Source of the DNA: Acidovorax delafieldii
GTDB taxonomy: Bacteria; Pseudomonadota; Gammaproteobacteria; Burkholderiales; Burkholderiaceae_C
NCBI RefSeq assembly: GCF_007993815.1
Contig: NZ_VJWE01000013.1
Span: 310,001-374,000 of the forward strand
Reading direction: 5' to 3'
DNA length: 64,000 bases
Each line of letters starts with the position of its first letter. Position 1 is the first letter of the stretch. Positions 2,372 through 9,106 of the stretch are shown one piece after another. Both the position numbers and the translations under genes were made by a program. The notes below the pieces were generated by a model. It was given only the letters and a program-made list of their open reading frames with translations, was not told the origin of the DNA and ran no database searches.

Positions 2372-3277
2372 TCAGCGTACGGGGGAAGAAGCTGCTGCTG
2401 CCGCCGCCTCGATCTTGTCCTGCGTCTTCGTGTCAAAGTCGCTCGCGTCATGCCGCTCGCGCAACTGGCTGGCCAGATCGCCCTGCACGCGGTTCACCTT
2501 GCGCCCCCGCTGCACTGCCGGGCGCTTGGCAATCTGCTCGGCCCAGCGCACCACATGCGTGTATTCGTGCACCTGCAAAAACTCGCCCGCGTTGTAGGCC
2601 TGCCCTTTCACCAACAAGCCATACCAGGGCCAGATCGCGATGTCCGCCACCGTGTACTCATCGCCCGCCACGTACTCGGTCACGGCCAGGCGCTGGTTCA
2701 GCACATCCAGCTGGCGCTTGGCCTCCATCGCGTAGCGGTCAATCGCGTACTCGATCTTGACCGGCGCATAGGCATAAAAATGACCAAACCCGCCGCCCAC
2801 GAAAGGTGCACTGCCCATCTGCCAGAACAGCCACGACAGGCACTCGGCGCGGGCCGCGCCGTCTTTGGGCAAGAAGGCGCTGCCGAACTTCTCGGCCAGG
2901 TACATCAGGATGGCGCCGGACTCGAACACCCGCACCGGGTTGGCAGGGTCGGTACGGTCCAGCAGCGCGGGGATCTTGGAATTAGGGTTCACAGACACGA
3001 AGCCGCTGCCAAACTGCTCGCCCTCGTTGATCCGAATCAGCCACGCGTCGTACTCCGCCCCGCTATGGCCCAGCGCCAGCAACTCTTCCAGCATCACCGT
3101 CACCTTCACACCATTGGGTGTGCCCAGCGAATACAGCTGCAGCGGGTGACGGCCTACGGGCAACTCTTTGTCGTGCGTAGCCCCGGCAACAGGCCGGTTG
3201 ATGCTGGCGAACTGGCCGCCGTTTTCTTTGTTCCATTGCCAGATAGCTGGGGGGGTGTAGGAGGTAGATGTAGACAT
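2372..3277 (-). CDS. yghU: YghU-type glutathione-dependent disulfide-bond oxidoreductase
   Basis: The 301-residue protein has the YghU/YfcG nu-class GST layout: an N-terminal extension (about 1-45), a thioredoxin-fold domain with LYSLGTPNGVKVTVMLEE and the VNPNSKIPALLD glutathione-binding loop, then a helical domain with YTVADIAIWPWYG. E. coli YghU, the namesake, has strong disulfide-bond reductase activity with glutathione. The C-terminus carries a tail of alanines (KIEAAAAAASSPVR) longer than the fold needs. It is first in a probable two-gene unit with the GST at 1718-2350 and is transcribed away from the DUF4062 gene. Confidence 0.9.
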   Translation of the reverse strand: MSTSTSYTPPAIWQWNKENGGQFASINRPVAGATHDKELPVGRHPLQLYSLGTPNGVKVTVMLEELLALGHSGAEYDAWLIRINEGEQFGSGFVSVNPNSKIPALLDRTDPANPVRVFESGAILMYLAEKFGSAFLPKDGAARAECLSWLFWQMGSAPFVGGGFGHFYAYAPVKIEYAIDRYAMEAKRQLDVLNQRLAVTEYVAGDEYTVADIAIWPWYGLLVKGQAYNAGEFLQVHEYTHVVRWAEQIAKRPAVQRGRKVNRVQGDLASQLRERHDASDFDTKTQDKIEAAAAAASSPVR

Positions 3278-3671
3278 AAGGGCTCCGGGCCAATCGATGG
3301 AAGCTAGCGGATTCTCTAGCGGTTGCCGAATGAGTCTAGCGATGAGGGAGATTCAACGCAGAGCTGAGGCAAATGTCCTTCTGAAAACTAGTTATGCGAG
3401 CTAGGAGTCTGCGCCACTCAACACACATTTTTAAGGGCCTCGCAATAGTCATAGATTTTTTTGCAGGAGGTCGACTTGCACCATGGGCCAGGAAATTTAG
3501 GTCATCCGTTGCCGAAACCGACGGCCACCTGTCACAACTCCCTTTTCACATCATCCAACCCATTAGCATAGAGAAGTAGGCACAAATCAGTGGGATAGAC
3601 AGCGACCAATCTAAACCTCTTGGGCAAGCCCCAACAGAGACCAACTAGTAGATAAAACGGGTGTAGCAAAC
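3278..3671. other. intergenic region of about 390 bases, GC drops toward the DUF4062 gene
   Basis: This gap separates divergent yghU and the DUF4062 gene. The yghU-proximal part has three copies of CTAGCG (3304, 3316, 3336). From about 3360 the base composition becomes visibly more AT-rich than the surrounding chromosome, matching the DUF4062 gene. A 61-codon frame at 3394-3579 shows no family features and I do not call it. The promoter of the DUF4062 gene must lie here, but I see no convincing -35/-10 pair. Confidence 0.6.
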
Positions 3672-6137
3672 ATGGCTGGTTCAAGAAGGTTCGTCAAAGT
3701 GTTTCTTGCCTCCCCAGGCGATCTGTCTGAAGAACGCAAGATTGCGAAAACAGTCGTTGAAGATTTCAATAGTCAACTGGCAAAAGCTCTGGGGTATCAG
3801 ATTGAGTTGGTCGGCTGGGAGGACACACTGCCAGGTGTCGGTCGACCTCAAGCGATCATCAATCGCGACCTTGACGGATGCGATCTTTTTGTTGGCATGC
3901 TTTGGAAGCGCTGGGGTACGCCGCCAGGCACCGAAGCCTATACGTCCGGCTTCGAGGAAGAGTTTCAGCGGTCAATGACACGAAACTCAAAGGAAGGGCG
4001 ACCTCAAATACACCTGCTGCTGAAAGATCTTGACGCCGCGTCGCTCGCTGACCCCGGGGATCACCTCAAGAAAGTGATCGAATTCAAAAAGCATGTTTTT
4101 GCCGAGAGAAAGCTACTGGCAGGAACCTTCTCTGACACTCGGGACTTCGAAAGCAAGTTCCGCAAGTGCATTCAGGGATATGTCATCGAGCTTACGGACA
4201 AAGACAACACATCGGAATCCGAGAAAGATAAAGCACCAGCTTTAGAGGCTGAAACCCTACCTTCAAGTGAACCAGGTCCAACGACCCCGTTGTCGGTTGA
4301 GGGTGCCAAGTTTCTGCGAACTTTTTTACACACGGCTGAGAAAGCATCCGAGGAACATCCCCTCGCCGCCGACGACGTTGCGCGTTTCAGATTACTTTCA
4401 AGCATAGCGGCTGTCCACGGCAACGATCAGCAATCGCTGGGCTCTCACGACGCGAATCTCCTTTACAAAGCGCGAAACAAGTTCAGGTTTGGCAGACGCG
4501 AAATCAATGGACTCATTGACGATGGGTTCGCCCATCTCCAACATGAGAACGTTCCACTCTGGCACTGGATTGCTGCCGTCGACGGTTTCAAAGACAACAT
4601 ATTGCCCATCTGGTCTGTTGTCGGTACAGCCGAACGCCGAATCGGCGCTCTCAAAGCAATGCGACTGATATCGGAACCGATATTTGAGAAAGAGCAAATT
4701 GGCCGCCAGACGCTTGTTTCGCTGTGGTTTGTCAAAGACGTAGATACCGCTGTGCGCTTGGCTGCTTTGGAATATCTGAGTGAATGCGGCCAGCAGGCTG
4801 ACCTACCTTTAATCAAAAAAGAGTTTGACCGCAATGAGACACCGACAAGCAGTGCAGCGGCTAACGCCATCATCTGCATAACACTACGTGACGATCGCCG
4901 CGCTGCTTTAGAAGCGCTTTATGCAATGCAGCCCAGCATCGTGGAGCAAGAGCTGCTGAATGCACTGTTCTGCAACGATACGGAATTCGAAAATGAAATT
5001 CTGGCTCGCGGCCTTAATCACAGCAGTGCATTGGTAAGAACAAAAGTAGTCAAGCTTCTGAGAAAACGGCATGCGCTCGCATTCAGCGTCGCCGAATCAC
5101 TCTTGAACGATAGTTCTGCAGAGGTGCGCTTTGAAGCACTGCAGGCACTAGTCTCAGGAGGGAGAAATTACTCAATCGACCAAGCAAAAGACGTCCTAGT
5201 ACGCAAAGGGCGAGCCACGACAGCAAGTGGATTTCTCGCAATGAGTCAGACAGATCGAGATGGCGAGGCCATGCTGGAGCGCTACGCCGAACAGCACTTT
5301 GACAGTTTGCCCAGTTCGGAACTCGAAGAAAAAGCCACACGAGCCATCTTTGACCAAAATGCTTACTTCGCGTTAGTCCGTCGAGACATTAGGCTACGTG
5401 GCGACGACTTACGTAAGGCCGTTGACAACGATTTTGTAGACCGTTTTGAGCTCCTACTCCAGGAGATGGCTAACCAATATGGGACTCAGACGGATCTGAT
5501 CGAAAAAACCCGCTCACTTGCTCAATATTTGCGCAGCAAATTTACGCGTGAAGGTCTAGACATCATCTGCGCCAGACTAGATCCGACCGACCTACCACTT
5601 GTTCGATCCAAGTTGGAGAGCAATCACATGAGCCACTCAGCCGAAGATCTTCGATATCTGGCGAAGTTTGGCCAATGGCGTGATATCCCCCTGGTGATTG
5701 CATCAATTGAACGGCCTGATAACGGTCGGAAGTACACGTCGTTATTTTTGACGGTGAGTAGCACCAAATATGTCGATGCAGCGCATACGCTCCTTGCGCT
5801 CGGCAAGCACAGGCTTGCTGATCTTCTGGCCACCCCCATGCCTGCAAATCTGTTGGCACACATCATCCTTTTTATGCCCGCCAAAGCCTTTCACGGACTG
5901 GACGAATCGGTTATCCATTCCCTCATACAGTCAGAGGACGAAAACGTTCGGAAGTGGGCGGCACTCAAGTTTGTTCGAGCATTTCCACGACGTAAGGTGA
6001 AACAGTTGCTTGACAACTACTTGGCTGCCAATCAGTTCTACTACAACGTTATACATTGGCTCGACTTCGGCTTATCCGCCCCCAGAGACAGAGTGCTGCG
6101 CGCGGCACTGAAATTAATGATAGAGGCAAAACCATAG
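3672..6137 (+). CDS. DUF4062 (TIR-like) N-terminal domain fused to HEAT-type repeats; possible defence protein
   Basis: An 821-residue protein. Residues about 6-175 look like a DUF4062 domain: VKVFLASPGDLSEER, then a strand IELVGWED, the block INRDLDGCDLFVGMLWKRWG, and a conserved acidic turn SGFEEEFQR. This domain is related to the TIR fold and in other proteins usually precedes an NTPase or sensor module. Residues about 190-215 are a polar, acidic linker. From about 330 to the end the chain is helical with HEAT-like units (VDTAVRLAALEYLSE, SALVRTKVVKLLRKR, SAEVRFEALQALV, NVRKWAALKFV). I see no P-loop and no membrane segment. GC and codon use are clearly lower than neighbouring genes, pointing to horizontal acquisition. 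It stands alone, divergent from yghU and convergent with polA. An antiphage role is inference only. Confidence 0.75.
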   Translation: MAGSRRFVKVFLASPGDLSEERKIAKTVVEDFNSQLAKALGYQIELVGWEDTLPGVGRPQAIINRDLDGCDLFVGMLWKRWGTPPGTEAYTSGFEEEFQRSMTRNSKEGRPQIHLLLKDLDAASLADPGDHLKKVIEFKKHVFAERKLLAGTFSDTRDFESKFRKCIQGYVIELTDKDNTSESEKDKAPALEAETLPSSEPGPTTPLSVEGAKFLRTFLHTAEKASEEHPLAADDVARFRLLSSIAAVHGNDQQSLGSHDANLLYKARNKFRFGRREINGLIDDGFAHLQHENVPLWHWIAAVDGFKDNILPIWSVVGTAERRIGALKAMRLISEPIFEKEQIGRQTLVSLWFVKDVDTAVRLAALEYLSECGQQADLPLIKKEFDRNETPTSSAAANAIICITLRDDRRAALEALYAMQPSIVEQELLNALFCNDTEFENEILARGLNHSSALVRTKVVKLLRKRHALAFSVAESLLNDSSAEVRFEALQALVSGGRNYSIDQAKDVLVRKGRATTASGFLAMSQTDRDGEAMLERYAEQHFDSLPSSELEEKATRAIFDQNAYFALVRRDIRLRGDDLRKAVDNDFVDRFELLLQEMANQYGTQTDLIEKTRSLAQYLRSKFTREGLDIICARLDPTDLPLVRSKLESNHMSHSAEDLRYLAKFGQWRDIPLVIASIERPDNGRKYTSLFLTVSSTKYVDAAHTLLALGKHRLADLLATPMPANLLAHIILFMPAKAFHGLDESVIHSLIQSEDENVRKWAALKFVRAFPRRKVKQLLDNYLAANQFYYNVIHWLDFGLSAPRDRVLRAALKLMIEAKP

Positions 6138-6307
6138 GTTGAGCTGGGGTGCAACACCTAGTTTTCAGAGGGCACACGCAGGCAGCGCCTGAGAGATTGT
6201 GCGGTGTAGTCTGTCCCACATGTAGCTCTCGAAGCCCAGCACATAAAGCTCAGATAAGGGTACCTGCCCCAAGCAAGACTCCTACCCCTGACTACAGCGT
6301 CGGCACC
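6138..6307. other. short intergenic gap between convergent DUF4062 gene and polA
   Basis: This stretch is AT-richer than polA. I see no gene, tRNA fragment or strong hairpin here. It probably contains the right edge of the acquired segment, but no target-site duplication is obvious by eye. Confidence 0.4.
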
Positions 6308-9106
6308 TCAATGCGCCTTATCCCAATTAGCCCCCACCCCCACCTCGGCCAATAACGGCACCTTCAGCGCCGCCACCTCAGCCATCAGGCGCGGGATGTG
6401 GGTCTTGAGCCAGTCCACCTCGCCCTCGGGCAGCTCAAACACCAGTTCGTCGTGCACCTGCATGATCATCTGGATATCCGGCTTGTGGGCGTCCAGCTCC
6501 TTTTGCACGGCCACCATGGCCAGCTTGATCAAGTCAGCCGCCGTGCCCTGCATGGGCGCGTTGATGGCGGCGCGTTCAGCACCGGCGCGGCGGGGGCCGT
6601 TGGGGGAATTGATTTCGGGCAGGTAGAGGCGTCGGCCAAACACGGTTTCGACATAGCCCATGGATTTGGCGGCGGCCTTGGTGTCGTCCATGTACTGCTT
6701 CACGCCGGGGTAGCGCTGGAAGTATTTGTCGATGTACGCGGCGGCGGCCTTGGTTTCTATACCCAGGTTCTTGGCCAGGCCAAAGCTGCTCATGCCGTAG
6801 ATAAGGCCAAAGTTGATGACCTTGGCATAGCGGCGTTGCTCGCTGGTGACCTGATCCACCTCCACCCCAAACACTTCGGCAGCGGTGGCGCGGTGCACGT
6901 CCAGCCCGGCGTGGAAGGCGTGCAGCAGCGAGTGGTCGCCACTCAGGTGGGCCATGATGCGCAGCTCGATCTGCGAGTAGTCGGCACTCGCAATCACGCG
7001 GCCTGCGGGGGCTACGAAGGCCTCGCGCACGCGGCGGCCTTCCGGAGTACGGATGGGGATGTTCTGCAGGTTGGGGTCGTTGCTGGACAAGCGCCCAGTC
7101 ACAGCCACGGCCTGCGCGTAGTGCGTGTGCACGCGGCCTGTGCGTGGCAGCGCCAGCTGGGCCAGCTTGTCGGTGTAGGTGCCTTTGAGCTTGACGAGGC
7201 CCCGGTGCTCCAGCAGTTTGGCGGGCAGGGGGTAGTCCTCGGCCAGCTTTTCCAGCACTTCTTCGTCGGTGCTGCGGGCGCCGGTGGCGGTCTTCTTGAC
7301 CACGGGCATGCCCAGCTTGTCGAAGAAGATTTCGCCCAGCTGCTTGGGGCTGCTCAGGTTGAAGGGCTGGCCTGCAATCTCGTACGCCTCGGTTTCGAGC
7401 TGCAGGATGCGCTGGCCCAGTTCGTGGCTTTGGGCGGCCAGCGTGGGTGCGTCAATCAGCACGCCGTTGCGTTCGATGCGGTACAGGGCTTCGCTGCTGG
7501 CAATCTCCAGCTCGTAGATGAAGCGCAGTTTGTCATCCGCCTGCAGCAGCGGCCACAGGGCGTTGTGCACGTCCAGGGTCTGGTCGGAGTCTTCGCACGA
7601 GTAGGCAGCGGCCTTGTCCACCGGCACCTGGGCAAACGGAATCTGGTGCGCGCCTTTGCCGCACAGGTCTTCGTAGGTGATGCCTTTGCGGCCGGTGTGG
7701 CGCTCGGCCAGGCTGGTCAGGTTGTGGGGCTTGTGCACTTCGAGCACATAGCTTTGCAGCATGGTGTCGTGTGTGTAGCCCTGCACCTCGATGCCATGGT
7801 TGGCGAACACATGGCGTTCGTACTTGATGTGCTGGCCCAGCTTATGGTGCTTGGGGTCTTCCAGCCAGGGCTTGAGACGGGCGAGCACTTCATCCAACGG
7901 CAGTTGCGCGGGCGCATCGGGGCCTTCGTGGCGCAGGGGAATGTAGGCGGCCTCGCCGGGCTGTACGCTGAAACTGATGCCGACGATTTGTGCGCGCATT
8001 TCGTCGAGGGAATCGGTCTCGGTGTCGATGGCCGCGAGTGGGGCTTTGTGCAGGCGCTCCAGCCACTGGTCAAAGTCCGCCCAGTTCAGGATGGTGTCAT
8101 ACACCACGGTGCGGTGCTGGGCTTCTTCGGCCACGGTGCTGGCGGAGTGGTCGGCAAACAGATCGCCGCTTTGGCCGGGCATGGCGACGGTGGGGGCTGT
8201 GGTGGCGAGGGCCACGGCACCCTTGATCGCGCTGGCCAAGCCCTTGAAACCATACTTTTCGTAGAACGGCAGCAGGCCGGCGTTGTCCGGCGTGTCCAGC
8301 GTGATGTCATCAAACGCGGGCAACCCGGGGATGTAGTCGGCCAGCGCGCAATCGGTCTTCATGGTGACCAGCTGGCGGCTCAATGCCAGCTGACCACTGG
8401 CGATCGCCTCGCGCAGGTTGTTGCCTGCCACGCCTTTGATGGCGTCGGCGTTGGCAATCAGGTTGTCGAGCGAGCCGTACTCTTCCAGCCACTTGGCGGC
8501 CGTCTTGGGGCCCACCTTGGCAACGCCGGGCACGTTGTCCACGGTGTCGCCCACCAGCGCCTGGTAGTCCACCATCAGCGTGGGTGGCACGCCAAACTCT
8601 GCTGTCACGCCTGCCACGTCGCGGCGCTTGCCGCTCATGGTGTCGATGATGGTGATGTGCTCATTGACCAGCTGGCTCAAATCCTTGTCGCCGCTGGACA
8701 CGATGACCTCAATGCCCTGTGCGGCCGCCACGTGGGCCAAGGTGGCGATCACGTCGTCAGCCTCCACGCCGGGCACGGCCACCACCTTCCAGCCCAGCAG
8801 GTCCACCACCTCATGGATGGGCGCGATCTGGCTGCGCAGGTCGTCGGGCATGGGCGAGCGCGTGGCCTTGTACTCGGTGTACAAGGCATCGCGGAAGGTG
8901 GGGCCCGAGGCGTCGAACACGCACACAGCGTAGTCGGCCACCACCTCTTTGCGCAGGGCCTGCATCATGTTGATCATGCCGCGAATGGCACCGGTGGCAG
9001 GGCTTGTAGGGTCACCCGGCACGGCCCGCAGGTCGGGCATGGCGTGGAAGGCGCGGTAGAGGTAGCTGGAGCCGTCCACCAGCACCAGGGTCTTTTTGTT
9101 GCTCAT
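6308..9106 (-). CDS. polA: DNA polymerase I
   Basis: A 932-residue enzyme with all three Pol I domains. The 5'-nuclease (about 1-300) starts LVLVDGSSYLYRAFHA and contains YKATRSPMPDDLR and SGDKDLSQLV. The 3'-5' exonuclease (about 340-520) keeps the metal-binding DxE as IDTETDSLDE near residue 358, so proofreading is probably active. The polymerase domain has motif A (SADYSQIELRIMAHLSGDHS), motif B (RRYAKVINFGLIYGMS) and motif C (QVHDELVFEL). It removes primers and fills gaps in replication and repair. The ATG at 9106 is preferred over an in-frame start five codons upstream because family N-termini begin here. It is divergent from the small secreted protein gene at 9159. Confidence 0.98.
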   Translation of the reverse strand: MSNKKTLVLVDGSSYLYRAFHAMPDLRAVPGDPTSPATGAIRGMINMMQALRKEVVADYAVCVFDASGPTFRDALYTEYKATRSPMPDDLRSQIAPIHEVVDLLGWKVVAVPGVEADDVIATLAHVAAAQGIEVIVSSGDKDLSQLVNEHITIIDTMSGKRRDVAGVTAEFGVPPTLMVDYQALVGDTVDNVPGVAKVGPKTAAKWLEEYGSLDNLIANADAIKGVAGNNLREAIASGQLALSRQLVTMKTDCALADYIPGLPAFDDITLDTPDNAGLLPFYEKYGFKGLASAIKGAVALATTAPTVAMPGQSGDLFADHSASTVAEEAQHRTVVYDTILNWADFDQWLERLHKAPLAAIDTETDSLDEMRAQIVGISFSVQPGEAAYIPLRHEGPDAPAQLPLDEVLARLKPWLEDPKHHKLGQHIKYERHVFANHGIEVQGYTHDTMLQSYVLEVHKPHNLTSLAERHTGRKGITYEDLCGKGAHQIPFAQVPVDKAAAYSCEDSDQTLDVHNALWPLLQADDKLRFIYELEIASSEALYRIERNGVLIDAPTLAAQSHELGQRILQLETEAYEIAGQPFNLSSPKQLGEIFFDKLGMPVVKKTATGARSTDEEVLEKLAEDYPLPAKLLEHRGLVKLKGTYTDKLAQLALPRTGRVHTHYAQAVAVTGRLSSNDPNLQNIPIRTPEGRRVREAFVAPAGRVIASADYSQIELRIMAHLSGDHSLLHAFHAGLDVHRATAAEVFGVEVDQVTSEQRRYAKVINFGLIYGMSSFGLAKNLGIETKAAAAYIDKYFQRYPGVKQYMDDTKAAAKSMGYVETVFGRRLYLPEINSPNGPRRAGAERAAINAPMQGTAADLIKLAMVAVQKELDAHKPDIQMIMQVHDELVFELPEGEVDWLKTHIPRLMAEVAALKVPLLAEVGVGANWDKAH

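What the first reader, a model, noticed from the sequence alone, without database searches (positions are those of the whole stretch)
3672..6137. Lone DUF4062-HEAT fusion protein: candidate single-gene defence system
The N-terminal 170 residues look like DUF4062, a TIR-related domain found as an effector or signalling head in STAND-type immune proteins. Here it is fused not to an NTPase but directly to about 490 residues of HEAT-like repeats. The gene is lower in GC than all its neighbours and stands alone between housekeeping genes, as many antiphage genes do. A TIR-like head plus a repeat sensor suggests ligand-triggered activity (for example NAD+ or nucleotide cleavage). The architecture is seen; the defence role is inference.
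Basis: partly seen in the sequence, partly recalled or inferred. Interest (0 to 1): 0.75.

Follow-up and report, generated by a model that had tools for sequence, protein, structure and literature searches.

The report
HEAT-repeat TIR-like antiphage gene
A lone, horizontally acquired gene joins a TIR-like head, from a family recently shown to stop phage infection by destroying NAD+, to a long HEAT-repeat arm that probably senses the phage; it looks like an untested, HEAT-armed version of a newly described bacterial defence.

Summary
Window 3672-6137 (+) encodes 821 aa: a DUF4062 head (about 1-180) and an all-helical HEAT arm (about 209-819), with no NTPase found. The gene is GC-poor (GC3 53% against 81-85% for its neighbours) and stands alone between a GST-like gene and polA. 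It belongs to a coherent family: 34 of 54 loci found have uninterrupted 784-830-codon frames, in several phyla. E97 is present in 24 of 24 aligned heads not picked by that motif, and lines up with the TIR glutamate. A May 2026 preprint shows that DUF4062 is a TIR-like NADase acting in antiphage defence (Swarozyc, triggered by the phage portal). What differs from Swarozyc is the sensor: about 600 residues of HEAT repeats instead of a short winged-helix domain, in plan closer to DSR2 (SIR2-HEAT). Enrichment of defence genes among chromosomal neighbours was only modest against a control. Enzyme activity, trigger and phage phenotype are untested. Verdict: new variant of a known kind.

The parts
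3672..6137 (+). DUF4062-HEAT gene, 821 aa
3672..4211 (+). TIR-like DUF4062 head, residues 1-180
   Evidence: Pfam DUF4062, modelled alpha/beta fold, weak profile match to TIR_2
3960..3962 (+). codon of E97, proposed catalytic glutamate
   Evidence: E in 38 of 38 rows of A2 (biased by the search motif), in 24 of 24 aligned heads not selected by the motif; aligned with TIR glutamate
4221..4295 (+). linker, residues 184-208 (pLDDT under 50 at 184-203)
4296..6128 (+). all-helical HEAT solenoid, residues 209-819, proposed phage sensor
   Evidence: sensor role inferred
6039..6071 (+). conserved C-terminal stretch, residues 790-800 (W796, L797, D798 in 33, 35 and 36 of 38 rows)
3367..6299 (.). inserted segment: homology to same-genus relatives ends at 3261-3366 and resumes at 6300-6308 in 14 of 14 relatives with both flanks

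Best explanation
A single-gene antiphage abortive-infection protein. The HEAT arm binds a phage product, most likely a structural protein made late in infection. [quoted passage not shown] Shown here: architecture, conserved residues, arrival at a variable cargo site, carriage by prophages. Inferred from characterised DUF4062 relatives: NADase activity and abortive infection. Inferred by analogy with Swarozyc and DSR2: the HEAT arm as phage sensor.
For: DUF4062 head; five strands and five main helices in TIR order; head profile fits TIR_2 better than NDT or a response-regulator control (hhalign E 0.0031, 0.25, 0.5); E97 in 24 of 24 aligned heads outside the motif-selected set. DUF4062 proteins shown to be NADases and antiphage in PMC13174449. 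Mobility: full length in 0 of 35 other same-genus genomes, GC3 53% against 81-85%, nearest relatives in Pseudomonas and one other genus of the family, cargo site with sharp edges in 14 of 14, a PD-Lambda-5_B-type methylase plus AAA ATPase at that site in G007, full-length copies in 5 viral contigs with phage structural or packaging genes in the 4 tested, one beside a P2-type portal, a published hotspot. HEAT arm found only with this head in the strong matches.
Against: No activity, trigger or phenotype measured. The TIR profile match is weak (probability 10%) and a PDB sequence search with the head profile found nothing. Not every DUF4062 is active: in the preprint NWD1, NWD2 and NPHP3 did not hydrolyse NAD+. 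PADLOC hits among chromosomal neighbours were only slightly above a matched control and hand-picked neighbours were mostly negative. The GST-polA site carries mostly non-defence-looking cargo in relatives.
Confidence: 0.68

Rival explanations
1. A defence protein whose head does not deplete NAD+: it makes a signal molecule or acts on nucleosides, as other TIR or NDT enzymes do, or it is a non-catalytic clustering head.
For: DUF4062 is described as distantly similar to both TIR and NDT, and three human DUF4062 proteins were inactive in the assay reported.
Against: The NDT profile fits worse than TIR; E97 is retained in 24 of 24 other heads; tested bacterial relatives hydrolyse NAD+.
Confidence: 0.17
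2. A prophage-derived accessory gene with a job other than stopping phages, for example a stress or competition function of the lysogen.
For: Full-length copies in viral contigs; the chromosomal site also carries non-defence-looking cargo; neighbour enrichment modest.
Against: Family-level antiphage activity in print; one copy beside the P2 portal, in the published defence hotspot region; a PD-Lambda-5-type methylase at the same chromosomal site in a relative.
Confidence: 0.1
3. A housekeeping or regulatory gene of this lineage.
For: Its neighbours look like ordinary metabolic and replication genes.
Against: Full length in 0 of 35 other same-genus genomes; foreign GC3; other content at the same place in 14 of 14 relatives with both flanks.
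Confidence: 0.02

Closest known systems
Swarozyc, e.g. KpSwz of Klebsiella (PMC13174449, preprint, May 2026)
   Same: N-terminal DUF4062 TIR-like head with a conserved glutamate; single-gene; patchy and mobile distribution.
   Different: C-terminal sensor is about 610 residues of HEAT repeats here, against a short HTH/winged auxiliary domain that binds the portal there. Activity and trigger untested here. HEAT is not mentioned in its main text (one hit, in another sense or word); its supplement could not be read.
DSR2 (SIR2-HEAT NADase; PMC11263360, passages seen)
   Same: NADase-type head followed by a long HEAT arm; in DSR2 the helical arm receives a phage tail tube protein. Works-like comparison only.
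   Different: The head is DUF4062, not SIR2; no sequence kinship was detected and DSR2 was not among the 50 Foldseek rows shown.
PDC-S60 (PADLOC defence candidate)
   Same: The head matches profile positions 2-176 of 906 (E 1.1e-29).
   Different: The other 730 profile positions do not match. No paper in the library names PDC-S60.
STAND / Avs-type proteins with DUF4062 heads
   Same: TIR-like head plus repeat sensor in one chain (family knowledge recalled; human TEP1, NWD1, NWD2 and NPHP3 with NACHT).
   Different: No NTPase domain found between head and repeats.

Membership tests
DUF4062 (PF13271) | match above the curated cut-off | tested here: met
   31.9 bits against 24.7
DUF4062 TIR-like NADase | conserved catalytic glutamate | tested here: met
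   E97 present and aligned with the TIR glutamate; which residue aligns with KpSwz E97 was not checked because that sequence was not at hand
DUF4062 TIR-like NADase | TIR-like fold | tested here: inconclusive
   strand-helix order fits, weak profile match; no fold search of the head alone
DUF4062 TIR-like NADase | NAD+ hydrolysis | not testable with these tools
   needs an assay
Swarozyc | short HTH/winged auxiliary domain that binds the portal | tested here: not met
   C-terminal part is a HEAT solenoid
Swarozyc | antiphage abortive infection | not testable with these tools
   needs phage challenge
DSR2 | SIR2 N-terminal domain | tested here: not met
   the head is DUF4062; no SIR2 family listed
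DSR2 | HEAT-repeat sensor arm | tested here: met
   HEAT arm present; its sensing role is inferred
PDC-S60 (PADLOC) | match over the whole 906-position profile | tested here: not met
   only positions 2-176 match
STAND / Avs-type protein | NTPase domain | tested here: not met
   none listed by Pfam at E up to 1

The most novel reading that the evidence does not exclude
DUF4062-HEAT is a separate, widespread defence family in which a long HEAT arm reads a phage structural protein by a route different from the portal-ring binding of Swarozyc. Evolution would then have joined two unrelated NADase heads (SIR2 in DSR2, TIR-like DUF4062 here) to HEAT arms for the same job.
Probability: 0.5. Interest if true: 0.65.

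Novelty: new variant of a known kind. Interest (0 to 1): 0.52.

Why it matters
DUF4062 went from unknown to TIR-like antiphage NADase in a 2026 preprint that studied one type of bacterial sensor. This family offers a second sensor type on the same head, found in several phyla and carried by prophages. If it protects, comparing its trigger with the portal-sensing type would show how one NADase head is wired to different phage sensors, and may help explain how the human relative TEP1 is switched on.

Tried and rejected
Inverted repeat 3377-3391 / 6158-6172 as ends of a mobile unit: its core occurs only these two times in the genome, but seven homologue loci show inverted pairs of like length and no other locus held at that time contained the motif (only copies of the window's own stretch). 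Dropped as within chance.

Strong defence-island claim from chromosomal neighbours: 255 neighbour proteins of 36 loci gave 59 and 98 PADLOC families at 1e-10, 25 of each shown (names such as ThsA, GajB, AbiD, a DRT type, MTases). The control (138 proteins, 14 regions of the same contigs) gave 21 families at 1e-20, only mad3 and kinase types. The test set from the same 14 genomes (113 proteins) gave 29 families, 25 shown: mad3, kinase types, and in addition Cas1, PDC-M37B and DolB. So the excess is small, and loci on short contigs, where GajB, AbiD and ThsA lay, have no control. From the control I left out 3 of 17 regions and 3 long proteins to fit size limits, while long proteins stayed in the test set; genes were called by a simple script, so some are spurious. 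Hand-picked neighbours: of 10, one kinase, one TPR match, eight none; the 6 neighbours of family members had no match. A crude tyrosine-recombinase motif: 5 of 113 in the test set, 1 of 138 in the control.

Swapped sensors: 767 genome entries searched with the C-terminal half (369 and 398, overlapping, own genome in both) gave four strong genomes other than the window's (best piece E below 1e-80), all with a DUF4062 head; the other matches were weak. No swap seen, on few cases.

Discarded: single-sequence structure (pLDDT 40). Negative: PDB sequence search with the single protein and the head profile; phage records. Paper search for the word Swarozyc found nothing although a paper in the library bears the name, so that search says nothing.

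Full report
WHAT IS THERE. The finding's coordinates hold a single ORF at 3672-6137 (+), 821 aa. Pfam finds DUF4062 at 9-100 and HEAT repeats at 444-498. With a 38-row alignment of relatives (A2) AlphaFold gives mean pLDDT 86 and pTM 0.68: an alpha/beta head to about residue 180, a loose linker, then only helices from 209 to 819. A family profile matches a synthetic fusion (9sah) and designed alphaRep HEAT proteins in the PDB around residues 358-521. Foldseek with the whole model returns helical-repeat proteins such as PP2A-A, with low TM-scores and one match at E 0.001 or better. No NTPase was listed.

THE HEAD. The strand-helix order of the model is that of a TIR domain, five strands and five main helices. 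A profile of 34 heads (A5) against 14 TIR_2 domains, 4 NDT domains and 11 response regulators (12 taken, one dropped as too short) gave hhalign E-values of 0.0031, 0.25 and 0.5. The TIR value is weak taken alone (probability 10%), but the alignment puts E97 on the TIR glutamate. In A2, S92, G93, F94, E96 and E97 are present in 38 of 38 rows and E95 in 37; this is biased, because the scan that found most rows used a motif covering these residues (37 of 38 rows hold it). The unbiased test is: heads reached without that motif gave 25 aligned segments (a few are overlapping copies of one stretch); 24 cover the position, and 24 of 24 have E at 97, while position 96 is E in 21 of 24. A preprint (PMC13174449; introduction, results, discussion and figure legends read; [quoted passage not shown] coli by NAD+ depletion and abortive infection, that defence needs a glutamate (E97 in the Klebsiella protein), and that the phage portal triggers it through an HTH/winged auxiliary domain. 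I could not check whether the shared number E97 is more than coincidence.

THE FAMILY. One scan of the species-genome collection gave 54 loci; 37 match the query from its first six residues to residue 790 or beyond, and 34 have uninterrupted frames of 784-830 codons. In the tree they carry labels of Pseudomonadota (26 rows) and of Cyanobacteriota, Bacteroidota, Acidobacteriota, Actinomycetota, Chloroflexota, Bacillota and Nanobdellota; several are MAG contigs whose labels may be wrong. The window protein groups with two Pseudomonas proteins, G402 of the same family and a Burkholderiales MAG (100/99 support). Identity to the Pseudomonas proteins is 72 and 67%. Full length is absent from 35 of 35 other same-genus genomes (2 of 35 have a head-only match) and present in 2 of 398 other genomes of the family (G402, G125; 14 of 398 have some match). 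This pattern indicates horizontal transfer. Strong C-terminal matches came with a DUF4062 head in four of four genomes; one of them looks like a genome already seen under another handle.

THE SITE. polA was found in 22 same-genus relatives; I fetched the adjoining stretch from 17 of them, and 14 show both flanks. Homology to the window ends at 3261-3366 on the GST side and resumes at 6300-6308 at the polA end in 14 of 14. Between lie about 0.6-7.3 kb of differing content, mostly short ORFs or, by eye, metabolic-looking ones, so it is a general cargo site and not purely a defence one. In G007 (L160) it holds a GC-poor pair: a D12 methylase matching PADLOC PD-Lambda-5_B (E 1.2e-114; also MTase_II, 1.3e-98) and an AAA_15 ATPase with weak matches to GajA, AriA and PtuA; its PADLOC list was cut at 25 of 109 and showed no PD-Lambda-5_A. 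PD-Lambda-5 is a tested defence, described as a compact RM plus Abi system (PMC9519451, passages). G004 (L162) holds a pretoxin HINT fragment. No other interval protein except one in L163 (no match) was compared with a library.

MOBILE CARRIERS. Five viral contigs encode the full-length protein. Ten neighbouring proteins from four of them were compared with PHROGs: in L181 the gene is next to a P2-type portal (phrog_68, E 3.7e-172) and terminase; in L180 about 2 kb from terminase small and large subunits; in L179 about 5 kb from a tail fibre-like gene; in L183 (the same Inquilinus contig as L065, by its length) 3-5 kb from neck and tail genes. L182 was not tested. The stretch between gpA and the portal gene gpQ of P2-like phages is a published hotspot of antiphage systems (PMC9122126, passages). 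A plasmid copy in Asticcacaulis is split by an IS5 element. Pfam counted 7 phage integrases and 2 resolvases among 140 neighbour proteins; Pfam was not run on the other 115 or on the control. PADLOC enrichment among chromosomal neighbours was modest.

HOW IT PROBABLY WORKS. The simplest model is DSR2-like in plan and Swarozyc-like in chemistry: the HEAT arm holds the heads inactive, a phage protein binds the arm, the heads come together, NAD+ falls, the cell stops. DSR2 (PMC11263360, passages) shows a helical and HEAT arm doing this for a SIR2 head; that is an analogy, and no kinship was detected. Shown here: architecture, residues, mobility. Inferred: enzyme activity, trigger, phenotype.

NOVELTY. 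The chemistry and the defence role of DUF4062 are in print. The HEAT-armed architecture was not found in the library searched: DUF4062 with 'defense', 'TIR', 'HEAT' or 'phage' and HEAT repeat with antiphage and TIR domain (which found only DSR2). The library lacks most subscription papers and the preprint's supplement, so this absence is weak. PADLOC's PDC-S60 shares the head only. I therefore call it a new variant of a known kind.

Noticed in passing
L160:314-2897 (same-genus genome G007, between GST and polA): GC-poor two-gene cassette at the same site as the window's gene: D12 methylase like PD-Lambda-5_B and an AAA_15 ATPase.
   Followed up: yes
L162:149-640 (same-genus genome G004, same interval): Fragment with a pretoxin HINT domain, so the site may also take polymorphic-toxin pieces.
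   Followed up: partly
L181:319-5518: Viral contig with the full-length DUF4062-HEAT gene directly beside a P2-type portal and terminase.
   Followed up: yes
L076:6001-6573: DUF4062-like ORF right after the large terminase gene in a prophage stretch of a Salmonella plasmid record, followed by an IS3 transposase.
   Followed up: no
L020:11965-15308: Asticcacaulis plasmid copy of the gene split by an IS5 element; described only.
   Followed up: no
L040:10001-11794: Bradyrhizobium copy is open over 598 codons and matches 1-409 and 637-811 of the query, as if part of the HEAT arm were missing.
   Followed up: no
L021:10001-10315: Cupriavidus megaplasmid piece like residues 709-812 only (45%), in a stretch with transposase-like ORFs by eye; probably a remnant.
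   Followed up: no
window 3377-3391 and 6158-6172: Inverted 15-nt repeat around the gene; its core occurs only twice in the genome but the pair is within chance.
   Followed up: yes
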